Source: Kappaphycus alvarezii (Eukaryota > Rhodophyta > Florideophyceae > Gigartinales > Solieriaceae). Taken from it: a stretch of 64,000 bases of DNA. The notes under the pieces were generated by a model. It searched no databases. It was given only the letters and a program-made list of their open reading frames with translations, and was not told the DNA's origin. Positions 36,980 through 64,000 of this stretch are shown piece after piece. Position 1 is the first letter of the stretch. Every line of letters begins with the position of its first letter. Made by a program: the position numbers and the translations under genes. The stretch covers positions 62,001-126,000 of the forward strand of contig NADL03000169.1 of assembly GCA_002205965.3 (NCBI GenBank), read 5' to 3'.

Positions 36980-37489
36980 CTAGACCTTTATGAGGTCGCT
37001 TTGTGTCGCGAGATTTTGCTGGCCAGCCGGTACAGAATGATCGCCGGGGTCCATCTTGATTCGGCGCACGTCCTCCGAGGGATCGCCAACCAGCTGAGAC
37101 GCTCGCGTCTCAGTCGCTTCTTGAAGCGCTGCACGTTGATCTTCCTGGGGTGCATCTTGCTTCGGAGCGCTGTCCTCTGATGGATCGCCAATCGGCTGAG
37201 ACGCTCGTGTCCCGGTTTGAGATGGCTGTAAAATACCGGATACAACTTTGTTGTTGTGCAAAATGACATCAACTCCTGTGCTCTTCATATCTCTCACAGT
37301 ACCAACTCCATCCTTAACATCTGACATCTGACTATCCTGTTGTGCCAGTGATGTCCCTAACATCACCCTTTTCGCTTTCACTAGCATTCCCACCTCTGCC
37401 ATTTCCATTTCCATTTCGATGTCTATCCGCACCCCCGTTGGCATCCTCCGGACTGCTGTCTTCATTCCCCTCCTCATCACTTTCATCAT
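36980..37489 (-). pseudogene. Low-complexity ORF with two in-frame 34-residue repeats
   Basis: A 169-codon minus frame, acidic and Met-rich in the first part (possibly the C-terminal tail of the Ulp1-like ORF in another frame), then SDVKDGVGTVRDM and two related units containing TRASQPIGDPSED and TRASQLVGDPSED. Each unit includes one palindrome copy. No domain is recognised. It may be a continuation of the protease gene. Confidence 0.4.
37049..37213. repeat. 102-bp tandem repeat carrying the palindrome
   Basis: GATCGCCAA recurs at 37081 and 37183, a 102-bp period (34 codons, keeping frame). Each unit ends in TGAGACGCTCG(C/T)GTC, the first being a perfect 18-bp inverted repeat (37095-37112). 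Confidence 0.75.
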
Positions 37490-38550
37490 TAACGCCCCAT
37501 CTTCATTTCCATCATCACTACTACTTCCGTCCTCGCTGTAGTCAGTGCTTTCCTCGCCCTCCCCCCTTCCGCAACCTCTTCGGCTTCCCCATCTTCTGAG
37601 CTTCTACTTGAAATGATTATTGGAACAGCATGCAAGTCAACACCCATTAGGAAGAGGAGAAGCCGCCTACGAGGGAGAGTAATGTGCTCTTGTGAGAAAT
37701 TTGGAGAGCCGCTCCGCTCGTAGTGTTCCATTACCCACAGTACGAAAACCCCACAACAGCCGGCATCCGTCTGCTTCGGATACCCTCCATTGATTGCAAT
37801 AGGTAATTCTTTATCCCTTGTACACGAGCGGTGTATACGGAGCACTCATCGGAGGACCGGTTATCCCACGCATCTGCTTCGTCTCGGATGTACTTTCTTA
37901 TAGTCTTGAGGTACGGCTTGAAAGTGTCCCGTGGATGACAAAGTGAATCATATATCAATATACTCTTCTCCAATAGGTTCACGACAACCAAAACCCAATC
38001 GCAAATTGTCAATTTCATAGGGAAAAACGACATATCGACGGTTGAGATATCTCAGTACCCCTTCCCCAATCAACCCCTCACTCTCTCATATTCATAATCG
38101 GGCATCAACAAGATCATGATTTGTGTAGAGAAGATGTAAACCTTTCTTGCAACATTGTCGCGGGTGACACGAAATTTGTTCCCGTAATTACCTGTACAAC
38201 AGAAAAAATCCATTGAATCATAGTTTAGCATGCCTTCATGCAACAGAATCAGGTCAATAAGATATTTCGTGAACTTATAATTTTTGAAACGAAACGGTTT
38301 CATGTTCTCCAGAAACGATCTTTCCCTCGGTGAAAGCGACCTAAGCACCGGGTCTACCTCCATGGCTTGATTCTGATGCGGATCCGGTACCTCTCTGCTT
38401 GGTGTATGTCCAGTATCTCCGTTGTCGATGTCTACAACAGAGACGTATAATGACGGAGTGTGGAGCTTCATCGTAGCCAATCGTGCTATAGTAAATGATG
38501 TGCTGTAAACGCCTAATTGCGGCCCAATCGGTTTTGGGATGGTTCGACAT
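37489..38550 (-). pseudogene. Ulp1/SENP-like (C48) protease, element X
   Basis: C48 proteases remove SUMO or related tags and are carried by several eukaryotic DNA transposon classes. Frames at 38480-38070, 38033-37731 and 37845-37489 together give NRRYVV, DWVLVVVN (about 37980-38005), SILIYDSLCHP, KYIRDEADAW and then QTDAGCCGVFVLWVMEH (37735-37780). The block around the nucleophilic Cys is well preserved. The residue before the conserved Trp, normally the catalytic His, reads Asp. At least two frame changes and the lost His make it inactive as read. The upstream part (SLSPRERSFLENMKPF) is unassigned. Confidence 0.65.
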
Positions 38551-39206
38551 TGTGGGACCGGTCGGACGCTAGTGTCGCAATAGTTGGGCTCCGGGAAGGC
38601 GAGAAAAAATGTTTATCGAAGATCGATTACAGGGAGAGGAGCAGCAGACGTGTTTGGAACGTAGTGGGGAGTTGTGCGGCGAGGAAGGGTTGTCGATGGA
38701 AGAGTTTGTTGGAAGTTCCCTCTTTCAATGCTTGTTAGAGAAAGCGTGTGTTTTGGTCAATGAATCTGTGGGAAACTATAACCCGTCGGGTAAATGATCT
38801 CATATGTCAGTGAATGTGACCAGCGAGAATTAGTAAATGAGGTGTGATAAGGAAAGTTGCAGTTGTTGAGAGACTTATGATAGCTCAAACTTGATTTGAT
38901 TCGCAGGGGCATGTCCTCATTTTTTTGCATTTCGCGCGATTTTAGCGTTAGAAACGTTACAAAGTAAACTGTTGCAATCGTTGCAATCATTCCGATTAGA
39001 CACTCATGACACATGCTGATTTATTCTTGGGGAACATGCTATAACTATCATGCAAATCCAAATATTCGTCAGTTTAGGAAACAGGTGATATCATACCTGC
39101 CCCTAGTATAGTAATCCACTAAACCCGCCCAGCTTGTACTGTTGCCCGCCCTAAGACGCTAGTGTCCTGAGATTATATAATCCGACTTTAATCTTGTAGG
39201 CCTACA
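38551..39206. other. Element X spacer with palindromes
   Basis: Palindrome copies at 38563-38578 and 39153-39169. A plus frame at 38517-38797 (EGLSMEEFVGSSLFQ) has no recognisable domain. Confidence 0.4.
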
Positions 39207-39451
39207 GTGTCGGCCTCCACAGAACCATACGTCGCTGTTGCCCCATTCGATTTTCATACAAACGAAGACTTAACGGACAAAGCGGCATCCCATCCCACAC
39301 CTTCACCAACAAGCCCGTCCTTACCTTCCCTCATTTCCTCTCTCATTTGCCATACTCCCTCTTCGATCCCAGCACATTGCCTACAGACAAGCTACAATAC
39401 CCATCATCTCTCCATTTACTTCCTGTCTGCAGTCGCCGTCAATTCTGCTGA

Positions 39452-40694
39452 GTGGAGACGCTAGCGTCCCGGGCTCAAGACTTCGTAGTCATGGAACGAT
39501 TTGTGACTAGCGATGCACCGACTCATTATTCCGTATTCACATACGTCTTACGGGCACTGGGAATTAAGAAGAGAAAGTCAAGAACTATGGCCTGTACTCT
39601 TCGTCGAAGAAGTCCTCGTTCTTTGAAGACTACGGAAAGATGGATTTATTGGATTAGTCTGCACCGAATTTGTATTTTCTCCAACACTGACAATCCTGTC
39701 GCTGGATACACGATATACTCTGATTGTATGCGCCACGCGATCTGGTAAGGCTTTCAGTAGTTCTCCGTTGTCACATTTGAGCAAGCACGGGATGCTCGAG
39801 TGTTCACTTTGAGAAGTGCTCCGGATGAAGGGACAGCCCTTGCTCACATAATGGGTTCCATAACAGAGCTTCTACAACATGGCCTACGTTATCGTCTTCG
39901 CACTGCAGTGCCTCAGTTTTTCTGAATGGAGATGGGGTTTCTCGAATGTCTATCTTCGCGACAGGTTGAGCCCGCGTCCAGGGTAATCATGTATTTGGGA
40001 CTTGGGGTGATGACTCCTACATTTATGACACCGAGTCTCAATATGAGCACATCACCGTTGCATGTAATGATGCGATTCAAGTTCTGGACACTACTCCACC
40101 GACACAATGCATCAGATTCTCGCGTATACTGGGAAGGAGAGAGGAGTTTCAGAATGCATGCTGGTAATATTTTGATTGTGCATGGTACGAAATGCTTTAC
40201 TTTCAATCTCCCTATTGAGATACGTACTCCGGATGCTCGAATGATCTCGTGGCCTTTAATTTATTAGGATAATCTAAGTGACAGGATACCGCGCGGGATT
40301 ATCAGTTTACCACAGACTGTTTGAAAAAGTCTATCCAGTAAATATGTATGCCAGAGTGAGCCAGAAAGCGTTCGATTCGTACATCCAAGATATCGAAGAA
40401 ATAAATCCTGATCCTATGCCTGTGACGGAACCGAAGAAATAGGAGAGGAAGAGGGTTACCTCACAGAAGTATAAACCGGAAAAAATAGGTTACATGGTCG
40501 GTAGTCGTCATTCTATCGTGACAACATCAAGCACACAGTTCTGGGAGGCAGATCACTCTTCGACCACTTCCGATGTTCCTGAGTTGCAAGTGGACCCTGA
40601 AGCTGTACCAGTGAGGGATTCTACGGAATCGGATAGCTCGGAGAGCATTAACGGAAGCGACATGAACGACGGCAACGGTACTCGAGAAGAGTAA
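39452..40694 (+). pseudogene. Element X convergent ORF (homologue of 62043-63166)
   Basis: Unknown protein, transcribed against the helicase. Blocks shared with the Y copy are the N-terminal YVLRALGI (Y: YVFRSLGV), GERSFRMHAGNILIV (Y: GKRSFRMHVGDILIV), CFTFNLPIEIRTPDARMISW (Y: CFTVNLPVEVRLPDAKMVSW), YPVNMYARVS and ERKRVT near the C-terminus, then an acidic Ser/Glu/Asp tail. Frames change near 39930, 40100 and 40267, and a TAG interrupts at about 40440. The conserved core looks beta-rich with hydrophobic alternation. I cannot name a family. Confidence 0.6.
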
Positions 40695-40986
40695 CAAAGG
40701 AGATGTCGGAGCGAATTACTGTGGGAGATTCAAATGAGGACAATGGTGATGAAGACAGTGGTGATGAGGACAATTAGTGGTTAAGGTTTCATACGTCCTG
40801 TAAAGTTCTTGGTACAAAGCAAAGTAGTTCGACACGAGTCTGTAAGCGATGGAATGGGACTCTCGCGTCCTATCCATTTTTTATATCGATTCCAACTACA
40901 GCACTGTATAGTACAACGCATGCCCTCACTGCAGTAAAGATGACACTTGAACATCTCCAACCTCAACTTGGCATCGCCACCAAATA

Positions 40987-41004
40987 TGGGACGTTAGTGT
41001 CCCA
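40987..41004. repeat. GGGAC-N6-GTCCC palindrome, best X example
   Basis: TGGGACGTTAGTGTCCCA, perfect 6-bp arms. Other copies in or near X, by position: 34580, 35840, 37095, 37197, 38563, 39153, 39454, 40856, 41081, 42205, 42758, 44221, 44317, 45720, 46317, 46365, 46829, 47635, 47741, 47821. In Y: 53883, 54576, 55895, 57408, 57511, 58843, 59168, 60547, 61667, 63493, 63869. Some are degenerate. Confidence 0.8.
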
Positions 41005-41087
41005 CTCGAACATCGCGTAGGTCTTATTTGGCGTGATGTAATAATTCTGGTTTTCAGAAGACATCACTGTATGTTGGATGTGGGACG

Positions 41088-42500
41088 CTAGTGTCTCACG
41101 CTCGGTCGATGTCTCTTCACATTATCCACATGTTCATGAACAATATTTTCGTAGATTCTACGTTTCCTGAGAACTCCTTGCGGATTCAGCTCCTTCCATT
41201 TCAGAATCCTCCGTAGATGTTGTAGCGTAAATGGACTAACCTGGACATGACTCCGAGACAATCCTTTCACGTAAAGACCTGAGAACGAAGTGCAACGTGA
41301 TAATTCCACGTAAGAATACCTGAAGGTCTCCATTTCCTGGCACTGGAGAAATCGACAGCAATCCTGCATAAAGTCAACCCTGCCATTTGTGAATCTTTAT
41401 TGCATAGCCGGATATGAAGGGGAACTGCGTGCGTGTCGCAATCACTTCTGCACTCCTGATCCTTATGGAATGATCCACTGGAATGATGGCAATGGTAAAT
41501 CTTTAAGCGCCAACGGATTCTTCAACCACAGTAACAGGAAGCACATCCCTTTTCGATATCTACTTCACCAATCATTGCTTGCCTGGAGGACATAGTCCTG
41601 TCTTATGTGTCAATATCACTAGGCACCCAACTTTCACTGGAATAACTATTCCGCTACTTTTTCCAGTTTTTTTCACGAATCCCGAGCACGCTTGTCTCTT
41701 ATCAATTCGAAAAGTGGTACTCTGTACCAGGAAGCCTAGGTAAAACGACGGAGTTGGTGTTCTTGACCTCATCTCTATAAAAATACAATTTCGTGTGCTG
41801 CGGGATGTCACGTTGAAGTCGCCTACTTGTTTCGTTTACTCTCCGTATGGCTGCGTCCGTCATGCGACCAACACGTATACGCTCAATTAATTCATAGAAA
41901 GACTTATCATTCTTCTGGCCGATGATTACAGTTGAGTGTTAAAGTTACACCTGCTCCGAACGTCCCGAATGTAAGATACCATGGATTCGCTAAAAATCTG
42001 TCGGTTCTCATCTCGCAGTGCATCATCTTGCTGAATAGCTTCAAGTTGAAATGGATCCCTCGTACACAGTATTTGTCTCCCTCCAAATGGAAGCACGGAA
42101 TAATTATCGGAAGGTGCCATTCTCTCAAACGTAGTCAATACCTCAAATATCCATAATTAAGCATAGCGCATTCGTCAATCGCCATCACCTTTAACATTCT
42201 CAATCGAGACGCTCGCGCCCCGTCACTGCATGTCATCTGTACTAGTTTATCCTTCTAAATACACCAATTAGGTGGAGCCCCGAATAGACTATGAATAGTA
42301 TCTCCTTTCAATCTTTCCGCGGCTTGATTTGTCAGGGAGCCGGCAGCAACTTCATCGTTTCCGAAACATTTTCTCAAGCATGTCAGAATCTTGTCCAACA
42401 CATAGGTCTTTCCGGTACCAGCCCCACTCAATATGGCCAGTGATTTTCCTTCCAGAGCCAACTCTAATGCCTTAAGTTGGGTGCGATCGGTTGTTAGAGG
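41088..42500 (-). pseudogene. PIF1-type helicase, element X
   Basis: PIF1 helicases are 5'-3' DNA helicases. Transposon-borne copies are best known from Helitrons and other large elements. The start region reads LTTDRTQLKALEL, then Walker A SGAGTGKT (42406-42428), NQAAERL, and Walker B VMAIDECAML (about 42160-42185) in the next segment. LPFGGRQIL then DPFQLEAIQ follow (42095-42040), then CNHR, and near the C-terminus YVELSRCTSFSGLYVKGL (41300-41260). The middle (about 41900-41370) is too eroded to follow. At least three frame changes occur. A palindrome lies between Walker A and B at the same place as in the Y copy. Confidence 0.7.
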
Positions 42501-42509
42501 CTGTTTACA

Positions 42510-45072
42510 CTACGATACGGCAGAGCTCACCCGCAAAGATTCATCATAGTAATAGTAAAATTCTGTTACTCGCGAAGCCGTGGCATTGACTAGTTTGCCG
42601 AAACTGATCCTTACGTTTTCTTGAATACTGTGATCCACTACTTCCATCTCTGTGATGCTGATAAGTCCTGCCCGAATTGCTCTTTTTGACACCACAATAC
42701 TTGTCTGACCTTTGTGAAGGTTGTTTGAAATCGTCGCATCATTCCTAAGAATCTATTTGAGACGCTGATGTCCTGCTACTCCATCAATGCACAACTCACT
42801 AAGAAAACGCAGCGATTGAATATCACTCTTCCAAAAAACTTAGCGACGGGACCTTGAAAGAACATTGTGAACATATTGAGCAATTCATTGCGAGAATCCA
42901 CTGGTAGGGAATTCTGGATGATCGGTAGCCAACTATATCCACTTTCAATAATACTAGAGGACATGATTTCGAGAATTTACAATCCTTTCCTTACAGTTTC
43001 TGTTACTGAGGGATGCTGCGGTGGACGACTTTCCGTACGCCGGGAGGTGGATGAGGTTTCCCACAAATTCTATCGAATTCTTTCGAATTAGTTGCGTTCA
43101 ACCACTTAACATAACAGTGGAGAGGAAACAACAGGCGTTGCTCAACAGTGTACTCGTGGAACAAAGATTTATGGACATGAACGATTGCGTGACGGTATCC
43201 CTCTGGCCCAATATCGTTAAGAAAATCTCCCGTAGTACGATCGCACACGGATTCTGGACAGAATTGAGGATGGATGTATTCCGAATCAATTAACGTAAGA
43301 CATGAAGCAAATCACAAACATTTTCTCGACTCACATGTGCACGCTTACAGCGAAGCTCATTTAGAAACAGCCATGGGGTCTTCTTTCTCCTAATCAGTGA
43401 CGTATTCGGTCTTTATGTACTGCAGAAGTTGTCCGCTACAGAAGGTGCTATTGCATCGCACTCCTCAGTTATGGACCGAAACTGAATTTGGTGCCTTTTC
43501 GCAAAGCCTTGTTGAATCCCATCCACGCAAACAGCTTCCATTCTTCCATCAACCTCACCTTTCGTGCATTTGAACAGGTCAATATCAGGGTCTTCGTCAT
43601 TAGCTCCAAATGAGATTACACATTTGCCGCATATATTTCACAGACCTTCAGTCAGGAGTTGGTGTAGAATTCCAGATTGTATAGATTGTATCAGAGACAC
43701 AGTTTGTGAATGATACTCCTTTAACATCCCCGTAACAGTTCCATTCCCCATTAACACTCCAGTCAGTTGGACACGTAGAAAAGCATGCGCAGCAGCTGAA
43801 GTTGATGTCATGAATAAGATGCATTCCTTCCGTCCTTCGGGTTCAATAAGCATGCAGCAATGCTGAAATGTGTAGTATTCTACATGCATTGCACATGGAC
43901 CCAGCGTGCACAAGATTACCCCAGATCGAATAACTTCACTCTTACGGTTTTCATTATCCGAACTACATGCTGGACATAGCAAGGGAGACTGAATGGTAAA
44001 AGGCTCTCGGTTTCGTGCTGCTTCACAGACAACAGCGTCTACATCCATCGCACGTTTGCAGTTTACGGGACTTAGAAATAGGTGCGACTGTTGTAGGTAA
44101 CGTGTCTTCCAGCCAGAATGGTACGGTCCTGTTCCCCTCCATGATGTGCTCCACCATCGGGGCTTTCATGCAAAGTAGTGTCGGCATCTTCTTCTTCAAG
44201 AATTCCATCCCCGTTTCCGCGCGGGACAAAAGCGTCCTGGTGATTTCCTTGGCCATTCCCATCCCAGTTACAGTCGAATCATTAGCGTTCTTCTCATCCC
44301 CATCCCCATTATCTCCCGGGACGTTAGCGTCCTGGTCGTTTTCATGCTCTCCTCCATCCCTCGCGTCCGCATTTTTTAGACGGTGAGCTTCTATCGTATG
44401 GACACAAGCACCTGTGCTCTTCGTATCACAGAACCCACATAGATAAGCCCCGCGCCTCTCACATACTCGTAGCGGAATGAATTACAGACTGTGGCCTGTT
44501 CTACCATTTCATAGCATTGACATAATCAATGTTCGACCGTTATGGGCACTCATTGCTGTCGTGCACCGTTCCAGAAAAGTGTGCCGTGAAACAGTCGCTC
44601 CTTTGCTGCACGCTTCCGAAATTAAAACCCCGGTTTGTGTATGTGAGATTTCCAAACACTTCCCAATGTCGTTCAACAATTATTTCACAGCTGCGACATG
44701 AATGCAATCCATTTCGCCATTTTGAATCCTGAATGCTGTCTTTCCAATACACGAACATAGTAAAATCCCATTCGACTCAGGCCAAAATAGTACAACTTGG
44801 CGGTTTTTTAGTTACCCTCCACACCACAGTGAAAACGTTAACTTCAGCGATATAAAAAGATATGATGACAAAGGTAATATCTGGAATAGTCGGCGTGTAG
44901 GTGTGTTCATGTGAGGAGACCCCTGGAAATATTCTTTCATCGAAATCACCCAGTTATTTGAAATCCCTGGAATGGATGAGGTCGCAATAGTCTGCGAAAT
45001 CCTCTCCAAAAAGCTGTCCAAGTTTCCCCGCCGTTTCCAGTTAAAGCCTTTGCAGTAACAACCTTGACCCAT
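42510..45072 (-). pseudogene. Cysteine-cluster transposase-like ORF, element X
   Basis: Homologous to 56686-59932 in Y. In order: TRRLFQILPLSSYLF (44900), a CRSC pair (44690), YLCGFCDTKSTGACVH (44440), MDVDAVVCEAARN then LLCPACSS and CTLGPCAMHVEYY with a further Cys pair and EPEGRKECILFM (44048-43800). Then VCVDGIQQGFAKRH (43534-43495), NMFTMFFQGPVAKF (42870) and ISFGKLVNATASRV (42620). The layout (Cys clusters, then a VDG that could be the first catalytic Asp) resembles CxC-cluster or HMGXB3-like transposase-related proteins as I recall them. Unlike Y, it passes almost directly into the helicase, so the segment with the second and third putative catalytic residues is missing. Confidence 0.5.
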
Positions 45073-45779
45073 TTCAGTATTTCCAGTCGCCTAAGTTCCC
45101 CATGCAGCCCCCTTGTCTACAGCCTTGTCCATGATGAGGTCCTACAAACTCTTGAACACATGGTTCCATTCCATCAGTATTGTGTTGTCTCATATTCTCG
45201 GTCCCAGTCCTCTCTCTTTGCTCCGTTTGTTCTTCACGGAGTCCTTGTTCCGCTGAAGATCCTTCTGAATTCGATTCATGTCGCTTTCACAAAAAAAACC
45301 CATACTGCAGGTCATCCTGGATTACCAGGATTACTTCAGACTGCTGTACTTCTACTTCTCGTCGTGTAGCGCTTACCTTCCGTCTCGAAAATCGGCCCAA
45401 CGCATCATATAATACTCCATTAACACTCTCCCACATATTTCACCTAGATTTTCACCTTGAAACTTGGAGATTGAGGCCTTCAGCACTTTCCAACGTGAAT
45501 CAGTGAGCTGATCGTGAATTTATCTCCTCTTCACTTTGCATTGTGTGTCCCAAAGGAAATATGAAAAGAATCGTGCGACACTTAAGATTGCTTCAAAGCC
45601 CCGTTACGATACCAGGTACGTATTTATTTGAGTTCATGCCAATAATCGTAAGTATCGTCGTAACGGTCATATTCGCTAAGGATATCTCTAAAATTAGCCG
45701 AGTGAGGTACCATTGAATCCCGGGACGTTAGTGTCTCAGTTTATTTAATCACACACGTCTCAAATGCCTATCCTCACGA

Positions 45780-46604
45780 ATGAAAAATACTGTTCCACGT
45801 TATCACACCACGCCACGCGCCGAAAGATTCCTATTTTTCATGGTTTTCTCTACTTGTACCTGCAATGAACAAAGGTCATCATATTCCAACTTATCAAGAT
45901 TGGAATCTTTCATCTTCAATACTTCGATTTCTTCACGCATTTTCACTATTTCGCGACGTTTTTCTCCAGACTAGCAGCTGCCTCCTTTTACCTCTGAGAC
46001 GGAACTAGAGGACTCTTTGATCCACATCTTCCACTTCGAGCCCCAGATTTCACATCAGATCCACCCGCCCTGTCCCTCAACGTTTCATTTCTCTCGTGGT
46101 TGTGCCTTCAATTCCTCAATTTCCGCCTTGACTCTTCAGTCATCGGGCCCATTTATTCTTTCGCTACGTTCAGTGCAGTCGTGGCTCTTGTCACCCTTCC
46201 CCGTCCGGCATCCTCGGTGCATTATCAATACTTGCATTCGAAATGTGCCTTGGGCTCTTCTTTGCTTTCCTGCGGGGGGGTGCGTCTCCTCATTCTTCGG
46301 TGACTCTGCCCACCGGTCGGGAATTAGCGTCCTGGCCATGAAAAGACGGCCCCCGCTGTTGCGTCGAGACGCTGGTGTCCTGCGTTTTCCTTATCTTCCC
46401 ATACCATTTTACTCTCTGGACCTTCGATTTCTTCGATTTCTTCTTCTTCGAGGCGGCAGGCTTCACTTCAAGTGTGTCATCGCTTCCGGTTGGTCGTTAT
46501 CGTTACCATCACGGCTGTTTGGCCTCTTCTTTCCTCTCCCGCTCCCCTCCGCCAATTTCCTCTCTTCTTTCTCCTTCCTCGCGGCATTGATTTCTCTCTT
46601 TTGA
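45780..46604 (-). pseudogene. Element X ORF2, basic region plus coiled coil
   Basis: Broken counterpart of 55665-56415. The first part is very basic (PRGRRKKRGNWRRG). The end at 45960-45800 reads REIVKMREEIEVLKM, LDKLEYDDLCSLQVQVEKTM, a coiled coil matching Y's LWEEIEILKTQ and LHDEKLRLLRNCVEDAM. A small nucleic-acid-binding or dimerising protein is possible. I do not recognise a family. Confidence 0.45.
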
Positions 46605-47530
46605 CGATTGCTAAGCGGGTTCTCAATGAAATTCCATTTTCTGAGCCAATTGAGGGATCATGACGGTAAATGCATCTATTTGCTTCTGTATGCTTCGACA
46701 GGTCACCCTGTGTGATCTCCCCGGCGTTTGCAACAGTGTTTGTACCAATATCCTGTAAAACCTTCATATGCTCCGAATATGAGCACATCCAACACGCCTT
46801 TGTTGGTTTTGGAAGCGCTCACGGAGGGCGAGACACTCGCGTCTCGATAACTTGCATTGCCTCTTTCAGTTTCCCGTTCGTATGTCGTCTGCACACACTA
46901 TCATTTAGAAGAAAGTTTGTGCGTTGTGAGAATCACCAGGATGGTTTCCAAACAACCCTCTCCTCAGAAAACTCTTTCCACCATAAACCTTGTTACTGAA
47001 TCCTGGAGCAAGATTGCGCGCGTTCACATGTGTCCGAACTACTGCAATTTGGTTAAGGATCGACAATGGTTTCGGGTTGCTGCAGTTCAAATTCGCAGAA
47101 ATCATTAGCTTCTTCATACTGCGTGAAAGGACGGTTGTGAACCTTTTTCTTCTTATCGACCTCCCCATTAGGCTCCGTATACCCTTCTTCCATCTCGAAT
47201 TCACTCCGGACAGCTCGGTACATGCCATGAACGATTTTTTTCCACCTCATGAACCCAGATGAGGTGAACCTGAGTATCTCTTGTTGCCGCACACAGATGG
47301 TTGCCATTGAGTATAGAATACATCTGCGCCACTATAATTCCATCAAGCTCAAGAATGAAAGGAGTTACCACAACTGGTTCCCGAGATCTTAACCCTCCTT
47401 CATTACTTTCTTTGACAAGTTCGCAACGTCAAAGAAGTCTAATATCGAACACGAGCAATGAAACCAGGAATGTGTTTCAAACATCTCACTGGAAACTTTT
47501 TGGCTGGCGAAGATAACGCTTCGGTGTTTG
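46600..47530 (-). pseudogene. Element X ORF1, unknown protein
   Basis: Counterpart of 54629-55610. Shared blocks are FFDVANLSKKVMKEG (Y: FDVANLASKVIREG), an acidic ANDFCEFELQQPETIV (Y: VNDFSECDMQHPQTFV), VYGGKSFLRRGLFGNHPGDSH (Y: LYGGKRALKRNIFGNHPGDSH) and LQDIGTNTVANAGEI (Y: LEDIGINSIGIAGEI). At least four frame changes. No known domain. The FGNHPGDSH block is the strongest family signature. Confidence 0.5.
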
Positions 47531-48735: not shown

Positions 48736-48746
48736 TCCATGTTTCC

Positions 48747-53962: not shown

Positions 53963-54234
53963 TGGCAGGTGTGTCGTGCATGCGGTTGGTGAGACTTTAT
54001 CTTCTCGATCATTGAAGCACAGTTTTTAGCGTTCGAAGGTTGCAACAGATGTGGGTTTTAGAGGTTTGGATTTGGTAGTGAGGTTGTGACGGCCTGTGTG
54101 GCAGGTGTGGTGTGCATGCGGTTGGTGAGAAGCTAGCTCCTCGATCATTGAAGCACAGTTTCTTGCGTTCGGAGGTTGCAACAGGTGTTTGTTTGAGAAG
54201 TTTGGTTTTGGAAGTGAGGTAGGGTCTGGGTGGT
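53963..54234. repeat. 136-bp tandem repeat at the ORF1 end of Y
   Basis: TGGCAGGTGTG recurs at 53963 and 54099. Each unit includes GCATGCGGTTGGTGAGA and ATCATTGAAGCACAGTTT. X has a different tandem repeat in the matching place. Confidence 0.75.
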
Positions 54235-54628
54235 GAATGAGGTGTGAAACTGGTTTTTGTCGTCGAGTTGTGAAACTGATTTTTGTCGTGAGTGGATTCT
54301 GTTTTGTGCTCTTTGTCGCTCTTTGGGCAGAATTAGGCGTCGTGTCAAGGTTTGAACTGCATCTGTCCGGGTTTTGGCTTCCGTATACCGAGGAGTTGAC
54401 CGTTCTTTTTTTTTTACCGCGGTGATTATTGCGGAGTTTGTTTTTGTACCCAAGAAGGCTGGTTCCGTTTGGTAAGTTAGCTTCTCGACCTTTGGAAAGG
54501 TAAATTGCGAGGTTCATAGGATTGAAAATTGTTGAGTTTTAGTATTACGGTTGTCTACTGTGTTGAGTTGCTGGCCTGAGAAGTCAGCGTCCCAAATCAA
54601 GATCTTGTTGTTGAGTGTCTGACTTCCA

Positions 54629-55610
54629 AGCAGTGCAATGGGTGACGAACAGGTTGGGTCATTTGCCACTCAGTGTGCTAATTTGGCAATTACTAAAGAT
54701 TTAGCGAAACCTGCGAAAAAGTACCAGTGAGATGCTTGGCATATCCCTGGGGTTTGATTCGCTCATCAGACTACTCAATATGTTCGATGTTGCAAATTTG
54801 GCGTCGAAAGTGATAAGGGAAGGATTTCGTGCTTGGGAACCAATGGTGGCCACTCCTTCCATTCTCAACCTTGACGGCATACCGATTGTGCAACTGCAAT
54901 CCATACTGAGTAGAAATCATTGGTGTGCAGCGAATTGGGACAGACATTTTCACCTGATATAGGTTCATGAGATTGAAGAAGAAGGACTTCATGTATGTTT
55001 ACCGCGGTAAAGGGAGAGACTGTTCAAGCAGAAGTATATGTAGATCCGGAAGGAATCGATGATAAGAAGAAGCACGTGCTAGAGTTTTTATCTCAAACAA
55101 TATAGAAGTTAATGATTTCAGCGAATGTGACATGCAGCATCCCCAAACATTTGTCGGTTCTGAACCAGGTTTCCCTAATTCGTACGCATGTTGCTACGCA
55201 CAAGGTCCCCCCAGTTGTGAATATAAATTGTACGGGGGCAAGAGAGCGTTGAAGAGGAACATTTTCGGTAACCACCCAGGGGATTCCCATGGGCGTATGC
55301 ATTTCTCGTTGAATGAGCTGCATTCTTCCCGTCATACGAACAGGGTACTCCGAGGGGCAATGCACCTCATTGAGACAAGGGTTGCTCGTCCTCCGAAAGT
55401 TTAGGGAAACAAAATACCTCTGTTTTGGACGTTTTGACGTATTGGGAGCACACAAGGGCACTAGAAGATATCGGTATCAACAGTATTGGAATTGCTGGAG
55501 AGATTCCACAAAAAGAATTATCGAAATGGATTCAGAAGCACATAAACGCTATGAATTGTCGTGATGGTACTTATGTTGATGTAACGGTAGATTCAACGAG
55601 AATCCTCTGA
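54629..55610 (+). pseudogene. Element Y ORF1, unknown protein
   Basis: A possible start ATG at 54629 (MGDEQVGSFATQ) is followed after a shift by LGISLGFDSLIRLL, FDVANLASKVIREG, an unfollowed middle, AEVYVDPEGIDDKKKHV, the FGNHPGDSH block (about 55262-55290) and LEDIGINSIGIAGEI with LSKWIQKHI (55470-55550). The four or five frame changes match those needed for X only in part, so decay is mostly independent. A palindrome lies about 50 bp upstream (54576-54593), matching 47635 in X. Confidence 0.5.
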
Positions 55611-55664
55611 GCAACACCTCCAAAAGGTACGGTTCGTCGCAACTGGAAGAATTCGGACGAAGTC

Positions 55665-56415
55665 GTGAACAATAGGAAACGAAGCACGAGGAAGAAGATT
55701 GTACAAGTATTGGATTCCGATGATGATGTGTTACTGATCGAATCGCAAGAGCAGTCAAATTGGACAGGTAGAGCAACGCAATCTACAACTTTGAAGCAAA
55801 ACAGTTCTAGAAAAAAGAATCAGAGGAAGATCATCAGGGGCGCAAGGGATTCGAAATCCCAATCGCCGACAAGGGAGAGACATGGACGCCAATCCCGGGA
55901 CGCTAATATTCCGGATACACCAATCCCGGTTGACTATGAGCCTGGTTCCCCTGAACGGGAAGTGATTGTACCAGAAACAACACCCAGATTTATCAGTTTG
56001 AAGGGCGGTTCCGTTATTGCGAAGGGTACGTGAACAAAAATGAGTATGTTGTCTGCTGAGAAATGGCAGCAGGAGACGAATCCGATTATCGACGGTCTGA
56101 GGGCGCAAATAGCAAAACTGGCAGCTCAGTTGCATTGGAGAGGGAGAGGCGAGAACCGGAGCCGGCGGAGCAGGGTGTAGAGCATCTAGATCATCATCTC
56201 CTAATGCGTCTAGGCAGAATTCACCACCTGTACCGTCAAAGTGTTGAGACAAGTTCAGACGCTTCGACAGACGGAGACTGAGTTTCAGGGTTTATGGGAG
56301 GAAATTGAGATACTAAAGACTCAAGAAAATGTCATTGATGAGTTGCACGATGAGAAACTGCGTTTGTTGCGAAATTGCGTGGAGGATGCCATGAGAAGGA
56401 GAAATATACTGTAGT
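55665..56415 (+). pseudogene. Element Y ORF2, basic region plus coiled coil
   Basis: A 122-codon frame (55665-56033) starts with a basic stretch (MNNRKRSTRKK), an acidic patch (LDSDDDVLLIESQE) and a Ser/Arg-rich part containing RDANIPDTPIP, where RDANI is encoded by a palindrome. After shifts near 56030 and 56200 the C-terminal coiled coil reads LWEEIEILKTQENVI and LHDEKLRLLRNCVEDAMRRRNIL (position 56290-56415). Confidence 0.45.
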
Positions 56416-56685
56416 AAATTGCAATGTTGCCAAACTCACCTGTACATTGATTTGAAATAGTATAACAGAACGGAAGTAAATGATTTGGATTTGTAAAGAA
56501 TGAAAGGTTTCAGATTCTCAGAATTTGTTTTTTAATTTTTTTTTAATCAAACATAGGATGAGACAAATACCTTGGAATACTGGAGCACTACTACTATCTA
56601 TGCAAGCGTTTGTGGTATCCTCACATAGGCAACGGGACGGAAAAGGGGACCGCAGGGAGCTTTACGACGAATAGAAATAGGGAAA

Positions 56686-59600
56686 TTGGTGAAGTTGATA
56701 ACTGCGAAGGTCTTGACTGGAAACGGTGGAGGAAACTTGGGTAGTCTCATCCACAGAATAGATCAGATCACGAGAACTGAACAACAGTACACCTTATCGC
56801 AGCATTGGTGTACTAAATTGAAATTTTACTTTCTCGACACTTCTCCGATGTTAAAAGAGACGCGAAGATTGTTTCAGATTCATCCTACCTCACCGTTTCT
56901 ATGCCTATCACTCCGTTTACCTTGCTCCCAGGTTGGTATACACGACAATTTGAAGGACATACATGTCGTTGTCTTCTGGTTATCAGGAGACAGTGTTACG
57001 AGATGTTCTGCGTGGGGAAAACCCGATTCAGAGTAATGGAAGGTGAAATGCAATGTGTTTATGTCAATGCTATGAAACAAACAATAGCAGAAATCGGAGA
57101 ATGTCTCGGGTTATCTCCTGAAGTTTCAGGGGAACTGCCTGCTAAGGTATACTGCGCTGCATGTGAGATGTCACCAACTACATTTGTAGACAAAATTCCG
57201 GATGCAGTTGTTTGGCATAGAGATACTCTCGTAACCCTAGCCATTTCCCGACAGAATGGTACCAATCGGAGCATTTACTTCATACCTTTGAGAATATCGA
57301 AAACGGGTGGATGCTACATATGCTAGTTCTGTTTTACGGGGACAGCAGGTGTTTATCTTCACATTTCTGAATTTCATCGCATCTTTTCGAAATCAAACGA
57401 TCAACAGGAAGCTGATGTCCTTAAAGAACATGATAAAAATCCGTATGATGGTTTCTTGGGTGATGATGAGCACGGAACCGAGTTTAATGAAATCCCGAGA
57501 GGCACTGAACGGGAAGCTAGCGTACTGAAGTAAAATTCGCCCACCAATATACGGAGTTACTGATGTGAATCGTTTCTTGCCCTTGGACCGGTTAAATGCA
57601 AGAGGTCTATGGATGTTGATGCTCGTGTCTGCGATGCAGCACGAAATAATGTATCGTTCAAGATAGATGCCCCTTCTACCTTTCCTATGTCATGAAAATG
57701 TCGCAAAACACCGGCGGACCACACGACCAGGCATTCTGATGAGCACATTGGGACCTTGCCAAATGCATGTTGACATTTACGTGTGCCTGAATTGTGGATA
57801 TAAGATTGAGGCCGAAGGAAGAGATGATTGCATACTATTCTTGTCATCAACTACAGCTGCTACACATGTCGTGATGCGTGCATTATTGACAGGAGTTTTC
57901 ATGGGTAACGGCACTATATCTGGAAGACTGAAGGAATACTATTCCCATATAGTTTCATTGACCGAGTCTGAATTTCCACCATCGTGTATCAAAACGATAT
58001 CTGTGAAGTACTTGCAGCGCATGTGCAATGTAATGTTGGAATTGATGACCAAAGTACCTGATGCAGATTTGTTTTCATGTCGAAAGTGTGAAGGTGGTGG
58101 AAGGCTGGAAGCAATTTGCGTGGACAGAATCCAGCAGGGTTTCGCTAAGAAGAACCAGGTACCATTTTCAGGTGTAACGGAACCATGCGAAGCAATCCCG
58201 CCCTCCAGTGCAGTTCTCAGTGGAAGTAAGTACCGCCCGAACACGCGGTTCATGAGAAGAGAAAATACCCCTGTGATGTCCCTCAAGGTAGTACCTGGAA
58301 GAAATATATCTGTGAACAAAGATAATGTTCGTGATATAGCTTCTTTGCTACGACTGATACGATCACGAAGTGTATCGGTGCAGTTCTTTCCGTAGGCTAT
58401 CTGTGGACGAACACCCGGTGACACACTTATTGACATCAGCCCGGGCAGCTACTTGACGTGTTGAGCAATGTTTGCTAATGTCTATTTCATAAGCATACAA
58501 TGGAGAGTCGTCTTCTGTCAGCATTATAAACTTATGTCGACATGCTCTATTCTACTAATTCAAGCACGCTTGATGAATTAGGAGGAAGTGCTCACGGTCG
58601 TTATCCAGCAATACGTCAGTCTATTGTGCATGGATTAACGGCTCTCGAAAGTGTCTCCTCGTCTATTATTTAAATAGGAGACTGCTGGAGGCCAATTATT
58701 AAGAACATTCTCACAGAGAGACACATTGCGTGATCTCCTTAATATGCTCACTATCTTCTTCCAAGGACCTGTGACTCAATTTGTAACAAAAACTGATGTG
58801 GAATCGTTGCGGTATATTGGAACGTATGCATCCTGAAAGAGACGAGACATCAGCGACTCAAGGAAATTACTCGGGACCCGACGTTAATTTCGAATATACT
58901 TAACGATAATGAAACTAACATCCTCCTAGTGTCACGGAGTATGTAGGAAGGTCTCCAATGTTTGATAGAGATCGAAGAAGGTGACAGGCATATTGGAATG
59001 AATGTCAGGGTGTCATTTGGAAAATGCTTCTTGGCTGCAATTCGCATTGTATGTCAGTTCTACTCCTATTATGATTCACCCATCCGGAAAAGTTCTGCTG
59101 TTACATATGCCGCCGTGTGGAATTCAATGACCTGCGACACTTTGATTAGTGCCATGAAGTCTAAATATGGGAAGCTAATGTCCGAGGCGGGCATTGATTT
59201 GCAACGGGTATTCACCACGGGAGTTACTTTCCCGGTAAACCGCAAGTAAGACCTCTTCCTTTCAATAGGGATGAAGTCCCGGACAACCATGATGCAGATC
59301 TCGGTCCCTGTTCAAATAACTATCTCCAAAAACAGAACTCTTTCACACCTGGAGCGGTGACGGTAACTTGCTCCTGTGCAAATCCGGTATGTTTCGGATT
59401 CAAGGTTCTAAGCCGATTCGAAGGCCCCAAGATTGCTATGAATGTTCTGATATCTATATTCCCTGAGTTACCACGTTATGTAATTTATAACTTTTCTTCT
59501 GGTTTTACTCGGCCAGTATCAACCAACTGTGGTGGTCATTTAGCAGAACTGTCGTGGTAAGTGATAGGTTCCATGTCGGGAATCACAGTGCGTGTTCACC

Positions 59601-59932
59601 GAGTTTCATGCCTGCCGCTCATAAGGGGATGGATTCCCGAAATTCTGTTGCTCAAGAGCAAAGATATAGAGGTATCAATTTATTTTGTCGATCATTACGT
59701 AACAGTGGAATGAAACTATACACAAGCATACTGGCATATCATACCTTGATTGGTAATATCATGGCCACTGCCAAAAGTACTGATGTATACCAAGCGAAAA
59801 CAGACTCCTTATTTGAGTATGACCTGTATTGGTCTTTTTTTTCATGCTTGGGAATGCAATGTTTGTGCTGTCCATATGTCAATTGAAGCTCTTGTTCATC
59901 ACTGTGGCCTTCATACAGCGAACTCACTGTAA
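56686..59932 (+). pseudogene. Cysteine-cluster DDE-like transposase ORF, element Y
   Basis: Order: GNLGSLIHRI, TRRLFQIHP; YCAACEMSPTTF (57150); a GGCYIC patch (57305); MDVDARVCDAARN in another frame (57610); TLGPCQMHVDIYVCLNCG and AEGRDDCILF (57745-57840); CRKC (58080) and AICVDRIQQGFAKK (58111-58152); LLNMLTIFFQGPV (58740); VRVSFGKCFLAAI; then TCSCANPVCFGFKVL and FEGPK (59360-59430), VIYNFSSGF (59480-59506), SDRFHVGNHSACSPSF (59559-59606) and SVAQEQRYRGI (59647-59680). I infer an RNase-H-fold transposase with VD, Y(D/N)F and the Glu of AQEQ as candidate catalytic residues. The second reads Asn here. At least five frame changes. The family name (CxC/HMGXB3-like, KDZ-like) is from memory and uncertain. 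Confidence 0.5.
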
Positions 59933-60299
59933 ATCGCTGCTCAGTAAATTTACTTCACCATTAATTCATTGTAAATTAACAGTGACTTCAAGTCAATGTC
60001 AATGTAAGTTACATTTGGCGGGAGCATAGCAAACTTGGTGATGCAAAATTTTCCTTGGAATCTGGTACCCTTGTAAGGGTTTATTAGAGGAGGTAGAAGC
60101 CTTGGAATGCGACGCGTTACTATCTCCCAGGTACTAACTGTTATATGCCGCTGTTGTTAAATTCGCACCCCTACCTCGCTCCATACACAGTGATCTTCAG
60201 TTATTGTCGTTCAAATCCAAACAAATAGGACCTGACTTTGTTTCAATTCCACCAGATTTCCATGGTAATCAGCCCGGACATCCACTGCAGAACAAGGTG

Positions 60300-61859
60300 T
60301 TCAGTTTTAGCCACACAAGGGAAATCAGTGGCTCTTCTTGGTGGAGCTGGTACCGGGAAGACGTAAATGTTGAATCGAATATTGTGTGAGTTGATAGAAC
60401 GTCTAGGAAATGACGTAGTTGGAGCGTGCTCTCTCTCAAATCAAGCTGCAGACCGAATAGGCGGATAAACGGTCCCTTCAATGTTCGGAACACCTCCCAA
60501 CTGGTGTATAACGAAGGAGAAGCTGCTGCAAATTGCGTGCCGTGACAAGACGCGAGTGTCTCGATTGAAATGGATAATAGTTCTGGCAATAGATGATTTT
60601 TCGATTTTAAGCTGTGGTGTTTTCGAATCCAATGATTGGGTACTGAGAGACTTGTAGGAATGTCATCGCCATTTGGTACTTCCATTTGGAGGGAGGCAGT
60701 TAATTTGCACTGGAGATCCATTTCAACTGGAAGCGATTCAACATGTTGAGGATTCACCAGAAAAAAATCAGGAAATATTTTCGTCAATGGCGTGGTACCT
60801 CATGTATGGTTCCTTCAGTGCGGGTATAACAGTTTTGCTGAGCTGCAACCATCGGCAGAAAAACTATCCTGCGTTTTACAACCTATTGGAACGCGTTCGT
60901 GTTGGCACAGTAACAGATGATGATATTCGTCGTGTCAATGGAACTAGTCGTAACACTCTGCAATGGAATGGTAACTTTCAGTACACGAAACTCTGTCTGT
61001 ATCTCAGTGAGTTAGAAGGTTTAATTCTGTTGCTTTATCTAGACTCCCGGGAATCGAGTATTTCTGTAATGCTGTAGATGACTTAAGGTCGTCGGAGACA
61101 CACATAGCAAGAAAGCTGGAAAGAATTGCTGAAAGGGTTATTCCAGTGAAAATTGGATGCCTTTTTCTTCTAAAAAGGAAGATTGGAGAGTACCCATCTG
61201 GGACCCAGTGCATTGCTCGAGATGTTATCTTTAGAAACACCTCCCCCGGGACAATAATAGTGAGTATTGTTGACAATAACAAAGTACTCCATCTCCATCA
61301 AATGTCACATTCTGTGAGTAAAAGAAGCTCTGAAGTTGTGGCCACACGCAAGCACATCCCCTTAATATCTGGATACGCCGAAACGATTCACAAGTCACAG
61401 GGCTTGACTTTGTCCAATGTTCGTGTCGATTTTTCGGGACCAGCAGGTATGGTATACGTTGCTTTATCGAGGTTTAATTCTCTTTCCGGCCTTCATGTGA
61501 GCGGTCTGAATCGTGATCACATCCGCGTCAGCCCGCATGCACGGCAGTTTATGCGGCGGATTATGAAGTGGCAGGAACTCTCTCCAAATCTTGTTCTGGG
61601 TAAACGACACCCTTGTGACGTACTTGGTAAGAATGAGAAAACCACCATGAAGAAACGTTTCGTTATCCGGGACGCAAACGTCTCGGAGAGAGTTGTAATA
61701 TTTGAAACAGCCGTACACGATTACAGAGATAGTTTGCTCCGCTCCCAGCGTTTCCAGCGTTCCAAAAGTCGCGTGGAAGATGACTCGCGCCTGTGCGACT
61801 CGCAGAGCTCCAACCAATCCTACAGTGGTGTCCCATTGCCGTTCGCATCATCATTCTAA
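60300..61859 (+). pseudogene. PIF1-type helicase, element Y
   Basis: Walker A LGGAGTGKT (60337-60363), NQAADRI, MFGTPPNWCI, Walker B VLAIDDFSIL (60590-60615), LPFGGRQLIC and GDPFQLEAIQ (60675-60740), LLSCNHRQKNYPAFYNLLERV (position 60838-60897), then after a frame change VIPVKIGCLFLLKRKIG, IPLISGYAETIHKSQGLTL (61360-61415), VYVALSRFNSLSGLHVSGL. This is the full PIF1 motif set. The N-terminal half keeps one frame but has in-frame TAA (60364), TAA (about 60468) and TAG (about 60655). The C-terminal 237 codons are open to 61857-61859. Confidence 0.8.
60547..60563. repeat. Palindrome copy inside helicase, homologous to 42205-42222
   Basis: AAGACGCGAGTGTCTCG, coding TRVSRL before Walker B. The X copy at the same protein position codes ARASRL. 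Confidence 0.65.
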
Positions 61860-62042
61860 ACGTCTTTTGCCGACATATTAGCGTTATTATTGATTAGGGC
61901 GACAATGAATTAGATTTCTTTAACAGTATGACCATCTGAAAATCAAGTTCTTTCCTATTTTTAACAACTAGCAGCCTGGTTTGCCTATTTACCCTACTCT
62001 AATTTTGTACACATCATAGCATTATCGCCAATCTCAACCACC
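61860..62042. other. Spacer between convergent Y genes
   Basis: Under 200 bp between helicase and convergent-ORF stops. One degenerate palindrome-like sequence (GCCGACATATTAGCG). No other signal. Confidence 0.35.
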
Positions 62043-63166
62043 TCACTGTCCAGAAGAAGACAAACTGTCCGATAGCACTTCCTGCATGTTCACATTCTCA
62101 AACGGTATTTGGTGATCTTCAACCATAGGTGCGTCTCCCTCCCAGAACTCACTACTCGGAATCTGTGCAATGTTGTTACGACTGTCAACTTTCCTTGTAA
62201 TTTCCCTTGGATTGTACCTTGTGGGTGTAACCCGCTTTCTCTCCCAAGCCTCAGAGTCCAGTTCAATCTTCCCATCGGTTTCCATTTCTAATTCCTCGAC
62301 ATCTCGCATATATGATTCCAAGGCAGTACTGTTCTCCGCTGCGTACATTCGGACTGGAACGACCTTCTCGAAGCTATCCTCAGGTATTTTGAGTATTCCA
62401 GGAGTATTTTGAACTTCATTCTTCAGGCCGTATGGATGGTACACGCACCATGATACCATCTTCGCGTCGGGGAGACGTACCTCAACGGGCAGATTGACGG
62501 TGAAACATTTGTTTCCGGCGACAATAAGGATATCTCCTACATGCATTCGGAAACTTCGCTTCCCTTCCGTCGCATACGCTGAAAACTTGTTCGTTCGCTT
62601 CATCTCAAATACCTCAATCTCATCGTATCCAGCCACTGTAATATACGCATAATGAGATTCTCCCTTGGGGATAATCGAAGTCTTGTCTACATACCCATCG
62701 AAATACATGAATTCTTGAACTTCGGTTCGTCCTTTTCTCGCAAGTAGCATTTGTAAGTCCACTATCACCATTAACAAAAATATGCGGCACAGTAGTTCGA
62801 AGAGGCATGTTGAGTCCACCTGTAAACATTTCAGATATCATTCCCATGATATGAGGAAGTGCAGTTCCTTCCGGGGTCTCACAGTAAGAGTGTAGATCAA
62901 CGCATCTGCATGGTGACTGACATGAGACAATAGCTTCTCAGCGTGCTCTTCCTGTCACATTGGCTTTCTTGAAGTCGTTTATAGAAAGATAGCCGGAAAA
63001 AGGATCTTCTCGTCCCTAAACAACGCAAATTCAGGGCATAGCAACCCAACCACTCCATACTCTTGTAGCTCAGAAAAAACTCCGTCTTGCTTTTGGACGC
63101 ATACACGTTGCACAGCATGATGTTGCTTTTCACCACACCCAGGGATCTAAACACATAGTTGAACAA
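62043..63166 (-). CDS. Element Y convergent ORF, unknown (258 codons open)
   Basis: The open frame 62819-62043 is the longest intact one shared between X and Y. It includes FMYFDGYVDKTSI, YAYITVAGYDEIEVFEM, GKRSFRMHVGDILIVAG, CFTVNLPVEVRLPDAK, FEKVVPVRMYAAENS, ERKRVTPTRYN, IPSSEFWEGD and an acidic Ser-rich end. Homology to X continues upstream in another frame (63166-62897, FNYVFRSLGVVKSN). The apparent start at 62819 is a frame-limited one, so the true start is likely near 63.2 kb. Alternating hydrophobics suggest beta structure. No nuclease, polymerase or protease motif. The function is unknown to me. Confidence 0.6.
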
Positions 63167-63214
63167 CTGATTTCCTCTCGGGATCTAAACACATAGTTGA
63201 ACACTGATTTCCTC
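63141..63214. repeat. About 38-bp direct repeat
   Basis: GGGATCTAAACACATAGTTG occurs twice (63141 and 63179), each followed by CTGATTTCCTC with a two-base difference in spacing. It lies at the N-terminal end of the convergent ORF. Confidence 0.85.
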
Positions 63215-63940
63215 ATTGCGATCCGTAACCGTGGCCAACATTACACCCTATCAATGGTAACTCCACACAGCGTTGATGGTGTCCTGGTGTTTATGTCTTG
63301 ACCGCGCTAAGTCTCAGGTACCAACAGGCCGTCTTGATCGAGATACACTGTCTAGGTCTTCCGGAAACAAAGTTATGACTGCCAAAGGCCTAGTGAGCGG
63401 TTCAGCGTCCAGAAAATTCACTTGCGATCCCAACCTCGGCGCCTGATCTACAAGCGCTCCAGAATCAAAGCAAAGCACAACAAACGCGTGGTGAGGACGT
63501 TAGCGTCCCGAATTTCGATGTGCAAGCCCAGGTTCGGTGCCTACGTCAATACAGTCTGTGAGAGTAATCAGTAACGGAGTGAGACACATCTGAGACACGT
63601 GAATTGATCATTTTAGGGTCTGATAAATCCTGGTACAGTACGTATCATATCAATGAAACCACCAATACTCAAGTTACATGTATTCAGTGCAACGTCCCAA
63701 TCAGTAATTGGCCAATCAACTTCAATTCATTTCGAATTGGGCATCAATGCAGTTTTTGATTGGACGGACGACGAAACTTGTAGTTACTATTCACTGACGC
63801 ACATGTACGAATTTAAAATTCGAACATATCGTCAACTTTTAGTCGTTACGATTTGGTACAGATATTTTCAGGACATTGGCGTCTCGTTTCTTTCTCTCTA
63901 CTGAACATGGAATCCCTTATGCCCTCCTATATTTCATTTA
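63215..63940. other. Y sequence beyond the convergent ORF, no recognised gene
   Basis: Two palindrome copies (63493-63510, 63869-63886) and one 83-codon plus frame (63653-63904) without motifs. Confidence 0.4.
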
Positions 63941-63998
63941 CCCGTCGGGTTCAATGTTACTCGCATACGAATTCCCCGTCGGGTTCAATGTTCCTCGC
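63941..63998. repeat. 34-bp tandem repeat at the window end
   Basis: CCCGTCGGGTTCAATGTT recurs with a 34-bp period (63941 and 63975) and may continue past the window. Confidence 0.75.
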
Positions 63999-64000
63999 CT

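What the first reader, a model, noticed from the sequence alone, without database searches (positions are those of the whole stretch)
36980..64000. Two diverged copies of an unfamiliar multigene element (X and Y)
Five genes occur in the same order and relative orientation in both copies: ORF1 with an FGNHPGDSH block, basic/coiled-coil ORF2, a cysteine-cluster transposase-like ORF, a PIF1 helicase and a convergent ORF. X adds a Ulp1-like protease. The mix of a possible DDE-type transposase, PIF1 helicase and C48 protease with three unknown proteins does not match any transposon class I know in full. Helitrons have PIF1 fused to a HUH Rep, which I do not see. Homologous blocks are visible in the sequence; the mobile nature is inference.
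Basis: partly seen in the sequence, partly recalled or inferred. Interest (0 to 1): 0.9.

Follow-up and report, generated by a model that had tools for sequence, protein, structure and literature searches.

The report
Seven-gene giant DNA transposon, two copies
The two similar gene clusters are decayed copies of a large jumping gene of about 16,000 bases that carries seven genes, among them its own DNA-moving enzyme, a DNA-unwinding enzyme and a protein-cutting enzyme, a combination that I found described nowhere.

Summary
X and Y are decayed copies of a ~16-17 kb DNA transposon with the same seven genes in order and relative orientation: ORF1, ORF2, a SWIM-CxC-DDE-like transposase, PIF1 helicase, a convergent orphan, a C48 (Ulp1-like) protease and a second convergent orphan. 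That only X has the protease is a window-edge artefact: Y's lies just beyond base 64000. X spans 33599-53103, is interrupted by a truncated copia (47881-52610) and has lost its transposase core; Y starts at 53110. They sit head to head in one target: ACAACT flanks X on both sides, and the disrupted repeat resumes right after Y. A third copy (C507) is 89.5% identical to X with matching ends. The 336-Mb genome has at least 31 transposase loci; 16 of 20 convergent-orphan loci lie within 12 kb of one. A 16-base palindrome marks the element: 14 of 17 exact genomic sites. The transposase resembles KDZ transposases, but no Pfam transposase model matched. New variant of a known kind, possibly a new superfamily.

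The parts
33599..47880 (-). Copy X, first (gene-bearing) part; terminus GGAATGTGGTAAATAAG at 33599
   Evidence: Start shared with C507 and C814 copies (window 33596 and 33600); 47880 is the copia breakpoint
52611..53103 (-). Copy X, second part beyond the copia: terminal ~0.5 kb, ends ..CTTCTATTGC
   Evidence: 90.5% identical to C507:23049-23543
47881..52610 (-). Truncated copia element nested in X (not part of the transposon); borders approximate by a few bases on the right
   Evidence: Three of the four best copia matches start exactly at 47881, the fourth at 47879; X-family copies continue past 47880; pol/gag-like ORFs
33593..33598 (.). Target duplication ACAACT left of X
53104..53109 (.). 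ACAACT between X and Y (shared duplication)
35328..36359 (+). X gene 7, orphan, convergent to C48
   Evidence: blastn to L009:3521-4565 (C168:128521-129565), 62%, E 9e-86; also in C507
37642..38558 (-). X C48 (Ulp1-like) protease, broken; His position lost
   Evidence: Pfam PF02902 E 4e-8 on one open piece, 3e-11 on a joined read-through; weak alignment to SENP5, E 0.076
39761..40691 (+). X convergent orphan ORF
41178..42461 (-). X PIF1 helicase, broken
   Evidence: AAA_19 6e-12, PIF1 1e-7
42511..45074 (-). X transposase remnant: SWIM-like finger (block 44683-44751), CxC cluster (43.3-44.1k); core deleted at 42509/42511 relative to C507
45824..46640 (-). X ORF2, coiled-coil; limits approximate
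   Evidence: only block 45824-45934 matches Y (56298-56408), E 1e-5
46672..47564 (-). X ORF1 (FGNHPGDSH)
53110..64000 (+). Copy Y, part inside the window (whole copy runs to about C168:132095, 17 kb); left terminus GCAATAGAGGAAATTAGGGAGGCCG
54710..55559 (+). Y ORF1
55665..56408 (+). Y ORF2, basic / coiled-coil; limits approximate
56576..59883 (+). Y transposase: SWIM region 56.7-57.2k, CxC 57.5-58.5k, DDE-like core 59219-59874
   Evidence: tblastn with P0001: 52-55% identity over the core
60241..61859 (+). Y PIF1 helicase, separate gene
   Evidence: PF05970 3.5e-17 on a stop-masked frame; Pif1 structures 2.4e-37 for the X+Y profile
62046..63118 (-). Y convergent orphan ORF
30437..30802 (+). 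Unoccupied paralog of the target: LTR end plus internal start TCACAACTGCCAAATC
   Evidence: left part 88% to X's left flank 33300-33599, right part 94.5% to the flank right after Y, C168:132096-132168

Best explanation
X and Y are decayed members of a family of large (~16-17 kb) autonomous class II DNA transposons. The element has short, weak terminal inverted repeats, duplicates a 6-8 bp target and encodes seven proteins: ORF1, ORF2, a SWIM-CxC-DDE-like transposase, a free-standing Pif1-type helicase, a C48 (Ulp1-like) protease and two convergent orphans. Shown: gene content, order and orientation in three copies, multi-copy spread, common ends, target duplication. Inferred: the transposase binds the ends through its zinc modules (perhaps with ORF1/ORF2) and cuts and joins DNA with an RNase H-like DDE core; the Pif1 helicase unwinds DNA for gap filling or a replicative step of such a long element; the protease removes SUMO-like marks from the transposase or from host silencing proteins. 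The dispersed 16-bp palindrome may be the binding site of an element-encoded protein. X and Y probably inserted one after the other into the same ACAACT target.
For: ORF1, transposase, PIF1, convergent ORF, C48 and gene 7 lie in the same order and orientation in X, Y and C507; ORF2 rests on a weak X-Y match and on the DNA alignment of X with C507. X vs C507: 13,068 of 14,594 aligned bases identical, with coincident ends. At least 31 transposase loci; 16 of 31 have a PF05970 match and 16 of 31 the convergent orphan within 12 kb; 16 of 20 orphan loci lie near a transposase although such stretches make up 0.23% of the genome. ACAACT on both sides of X, and the interrupted LTR family resumes after Y. 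Relatives of the transposase in other sequenced material: 4 proteins, E 5e-98 to 7e-38, which share PGA..CxC..YDFxCG..DxFHxxNHxCS..EQRN. PIF1 is closest to canonical Pif1.
Against: None of the four copies whose frames I looked at (X, Y, C507, C645) is free of stops or frameshifts, so no activity is shown. TIRs are short and weak: X 11 of 17; Y's and C507's ends align only with an offset. C507's duplication is imperfect (6 of 8 or 4 of 6). C814's right end is missing and C677's ends were not recovered. The catalytic residues are not fixed: the structure model failed (mean pLDDT 29.9), and of the three likely acids only E651 (12 of 14) reaches 85% conservation among copies, many of them decayed. 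Gene order is not fixed in the wider family: C645 is permuted and C592:64-74k and C759 have the transposase turned round. The palindrome is nearly absent (1 site in 25.9 kb) from seven other transposase loci.
Confidence: 0.9

Rival explanations
1. A KDZ-superfamily transposon (Kyakuja-Dileera-Zisupton) with extra cargo genes; nothing new at superfamily level.
For: SWIM-like C-x-C..C-x-H finger read by eye; sub-threshold CxC3 (E 0.044) and CxC5 (E 0.53, 0.97) matches on relatives P0003/P0004; YD..C and FH..H..C motifs as I recall them from KDZ proteins; 6-8 bp duplication, where a paper reports 8 bp for Zisupton (PMC12730594, passages).
Against: No PF18758 match in the scans made; TIRs much weaker than in described Zisupton (recalled); no KDZ element with PIF1 and Ulp1 found by the paper searches (open-licence papers only).
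Confidence: 0.45
2. An ancient tandem/inverted duplication of a host multigene locus.
For: X and Y are adjacent and inverted.
Against: 31 transposase loci and 20 orphan loci on many contigs, insertion boundaries and target duplication.
Confidence: 0.02
3. A Helitron or Helitron relative that lost its HUH Rep.
For: A PIF1 helicase is present; the genome also holds many other PF05970 loci (81 when grouped).
Against: Separate Pif1-type helicase, with Helraiser only a weak partial match (5.6e-8 vs 2.4e-37 for the best Pif1); no HUH match in sense frames; target duplication present; of the eight best PF05970 loci four match this PIF1 weakly (E 0.03 to 0.31) and four not at E below 0.5.
Confidence: 0.02
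4. An endogenous DNA virus or Polinton-like element.
For: Multi-gene, ~16 kb, a cysteine protease of the Ulp1 type, a helicase.
Against: No polymerase B, retroviral-type integrase, packaging ATPase or capsid match in the sense-frame scans of X 37.0-46.9k and Y 54.4-64.0k at E 0.1; several orphans remain unexplained, so a diverged capsid cannot be excluded.
Confidence: 0.06

Closest known systems
KDZ DNA transposons (Zisupton, Dileera, Kyakuja)
   Same: Cysteine-cluster and SWIM-like modules before a putative DDE core (KDZ layout partly recalled); TIRs; target duplication of similar size
   Different: No PF18758 match; separate PIF1 and C48 genes and orphans; weak TIRs; dispersed palindrome
Helitrons
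   Same: Carry a PIF1-family helicase
   Different: Here the helicase is a separate, canonical Pif1-like gene, no HUH Rep is seen, the target is duplicated
Polintons/Mavericks
   Same: Of similar size (recalled), many genes, an Ulp1-like cysteine protease (PMC10175614, passages)
   Different: No polymerase B, retroviral-type integrase, capsid or packaging ATPase match
MULE and CACTA elements with a captured Ulp1 (recalled: Kaonashi type)
   Same: DDE transposon with C48 protease
   Different: Transposase not recognised by a Pfam transposase model in my scans; PIF1 present

Membership tests
KDZ transposon | KDZ transposase domain PF18758 | tested here: not met
   No match on Y read-through, P0001-P0004, core pieces or C507 ORFs
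KDZ transposon | CxC cysteine cluster | tested here: inconclusive
   CxC3 E 0.044 and CxC5 E 0.53 and 0.97 on P0003/P0004, below cut-off; none on the window's own sequence
KDZ transposon | SWIM zinc finger | tested here: inconclusive
   CSCIRKTAFRIDNGEMDCIH in C507 fits C-x-C-n-C-x-H by eye; Pfam gives no match
KDZ transposon | 8-bp target duplication (Zisupton) | tested here: inconclusive
   6-bp exact ACAACT for X, 7 of 8 if read as 8; C507 6 of 8
Helitron | HUH Rep fused to PIF1 | tested here: not met
   (sense frames)
Helitron | No target duplication | tested here: not met
Polinton | Protein-primed DNA polymerase B and retroviral-type integrase | tested here: not met
   No match in three sense frames of most of X and of Y's window part
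Polinton | Capsid proteins | not testable with these tools
   Orphans have no Pfam match above cut-off; no usable structure
Class II DNA transposon | Common ends with TIR and target duplication, several dispersed copies | tested here: met
   TIRs weak, duplication clear for X/Y only
C48 protease | Peptidase_C48 domain with H/D/Q/C | tested here: met
   X PF02902 1e-8 on a stop-masked frame, 3e-11 joined, His lost; Y reads HW..D..Q..SCGVF by eye, one stop inside

The most novel reading that the evidence does not exclude
A new superfamily of giant eukaryotic DNA transposons that bring their own Pif1 helicase and deSUMOylase-like protease and transpose partly by replication, with a dispersed palindrome as an element-wide binding site for one of their own proteins.
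Probability: 0.4. Interest if true: 0.85.

Novelty: new variant of a known kind. Interest (0 to 1): 0.72.

Why it matters
DDE transposons usually carry one or two genes and borrow host helicases and SUMO pathways (general knowledge). An element that keeps its own Pif1 helicase and C48 protease across old, diverged copies (the longer X-Y blocks are about 66% identical in DNA) suggests that long DNA transposons need, or profit from, helicase and SUMO functions. That makes it testable whether large DNA transposons replicate during movement. The transposase family matched no Pfam transposase model here, so repeat annotation may miss it.

Tried and rejected
Structure prediction of P0001 from 4 sequences gave pLDDT 29.9 and was not used; no fold search was run. 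Scans of viral contigs with A1, P0001, P0004 and the Y convergent ORF, and of prokaryote contigs with A1, found no relatives. The convergent ORF has no relative at E 0.001 among 1130 scored candidates of the protein database; the PIF1 search returned 7694 generic hits, best 120 listed, so neighbour genes in other species could not be shown. Considered and dropped: X and Y as LTR or Helitron products; the repeat pair 30437/33297 as part of X (it belongs to a flanking repeat family: 35 matches besides the element copies, 28 of which end at window 33591-33599); 47880 as the true end of X (it is the copia breakpoint). The palindromes are not better conserved than the rest between X and C507 (86% vs 89.5%), so a binding-site function is only a guess. 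A genome search with ORF1 did not complete; gene 7 was never searched genome-wide.
Full report
Observation. Six-frame comparison inside the window shows collinear homologous blocks between a minus-strand region (X, 47.6 to 39.7k) and a plus-strand region (Y, 54.7 to 62.9k). The third codon position differs most often in all five genes, so the orphans were probably protein-coding before decay; the counts come from blocks picked for protein similarity, and a few were read antisense, so they are biased in that direction. Both regions are full of stops and frameshifts.

What the genes are. PIF1: Pfam PF05970 3.5e-17 in Y, AAA_19 6e-12 in X; the X+Y profile is closest to solved Pif1 helicases (2.4e-37; the best entries are yeast Pif1 as I recall), with Helraiser only 5.6e-8. 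C48: PF02902 4e-8 on an open X piece, 3e-11 on a joined read-through; X has lost the His (weak SENP5 alignment, E 0.076), Y reads H, D, Q, C by eye with one stop inside. Transposase: a database search with Y's joined pieces found 4 relatives, E 5e-98 to 7e-38, among 7996 scored candidates; P0001 matches Y's core at 52-55% identity. Across 14 sequences the core mostly keeps PGA, CxC, GFKVL, YDFACG, FHxxNHxCS and EQRN. In Y the acid of YDF reads N, one more sign of decay. Upstream lies a C-x-C..C-x-H finger of SWIM type, read by eye. No Pfam transposase model matched. X has lost the core: C507 has about 1.13 kb between positions that are adjacent at X 42509/42511. The orphans have no Pfam match above cut-off; one open part of C507's gene 7 region shows a sub-threshold Guanylate_kin hit, E 0.018, which I do not trust.

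Beyond the window. The window is C168:62001-126000 of a 336-Mb, 884-contig assembly. Just past its end Y has the C48 gene and a seventh gene, both also present in X. A third copy, C507:7579-23543, has ORF1, transposase, PIF1, convergent ORF, C48 and gene 7 in the same order and orientation; ORF2 was not searched there as a protein, but the DNA alignment with X runs through it. X and C507 agree at 13,068 of 14,594 aligned bases, 89.5%; Y and C507 at 58-63% in blocks.

Ends and target. At its ORF1 side X breaks off at 47880, but C507, C677 and C814 run on past that point with sequence they share, while a copia family begins at 47881. X resumes at 52611 and ends at 53103, matching C507 up to 23543. 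At the other side C507 and C814 begin at X positions 33596 and 33600; C677 starts 70 bases further in. A repeat family ends there: 28 of its 35 matches stop at window 33591-33599. ACAACT lies left of X, between X and Y, and (as GCAACT) right of Y. The bases right of Y match the sequence that follows the LTR end in an unoccupied paralog at window 30730-30802 (94.5%). So X and Y lie head to head inside one former target. The duplication can be read as 6, 7 or 8 bp. C507 shows GCCGTACA / GCGATACA (6 of 8). Ends: GGAATGTGGTAAATAAG and GCAATAGAAGAAATAAG in X (11 of 17 alike), a weak inverted repeat; ungapped, Y's two ends are no more alike than random pairs (6 of 25) and match only with an offset of about four bases.

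Family in the genome. P0001 finds 69 matches, 31 loci when grouped at 9 kb; these are lower bounds. PF05970 gives 100 matches in 81 loci, the convergent ORF 30 matches in 20 loci. Within 12 kb of a transposase locus (0.23% of the genome) lie 16 of 20 convergent-ORF loci and 16 of 81 PF05970 loci; 21 of 31 transposase loci have at least one of the two, 10 have neither. C48 gives 19 matches, many beside the convergent ORF. Not every copy keeps the order: C645 reads gene 7, transposase, PIF1, convergent ORF, C48, then ORF1 on the other strand, and in C592:64-74k and C759 the transposase points away from PIF1 (coordinates).

The palindrome. GRGACRCTARYGTCYC with up to 2 mismatches occurs 15 times in X, 13 in Y, 13 in C507 and 6 in 19.0 kb around the C645 copy; 0 times in the 70.9 kb of C168 outside X and Y that I hold, in C507's flanks, and in 77.3 kb around other PIF1 genes; but only once in 25.9 kb of seven other transposase loci (counts for C507 and C645). 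In the whole genome the exact pattern has 26 strand matches (11 and 15; reversed-pattern control 5 and 3), which I count as 17 places. 14 lie in or beside element copies (C168 5, C507 3, C688 2, C455, C600, C645, C814) and 3 do not (C462, C484, C767). By script 14 of 15 X sites have a C507 counterpart within 3 mismatches (two of them map to the same C507 site), but they are not better conserved than the rest. Role unknown.

Mechanism. Shown: a multi-copy, multi-gene unit with common ends and a target duplication. Inferred: DDE-type cutting and joining by the SWIM-CxC-core protein; Pif1 helps to replicate or repair the long element; C48 acts on SUMO-like marks; ORF1/ORF2 bind DNA. None of these functions was tested.

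Known kinds. I searched held open-licence papers for related elements (listings) and read passages of PMC12730594, PMC9297572, PMC8226300, PMC3424704, PMC10175614 and PMC6431247. None of the passages I saw describes a DDE transposon with PIF1 and C48 genes. The original Zisupton and KDZ papers were not read (recalled only).

Noticed in passing
window 16678-19040 (+): Host gene for a gamma-tubulin complex component 2 (GCP2), two overlapping frames (PDB match 1e-65 for the second), with few or no introns.
   Followed up: partly
window 24539-25234 (+): Transposase fragment matching DDE_Tnp_1_7 (2e-11), piggyBac type by recall.
   Followed up: no
window 11.1-15.6k (-): Gypsy-like LTR element with long open gag-protease and RT/RNase H frames.
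   Followed up: no
window 34446-34540: Hairpin inside X: ATAACGTTCCTATCAATACC and its exact complement 4 bases apart, within a longer imperfect inverted repeat.
   Followed up: no
window 38780-38797 and 63934-63951: Short shared palindromic word ACCCGWCGGGT upstream of both C48 genes, repeated about 40 bases further on in Y.
   Followed up: no
G000:C592:64-74k and C759:170-182k: Related loci with the transposase turned away from PIF1: a second architecture of the family.
   Followed up: partly
G000:C511:466.9k and 482.9k; C586:617-622k and C691:282-287k: Pairs of loci with identical or nearly identical scores: recent duplications or assembly duplicates.
   Followed up: no
window 2956-3255 / 8329-8628 and 9459-9656 / 16227-16424: Young direct repeats, 98% and 100% identical, in the left part of the window.
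   Followed up: no
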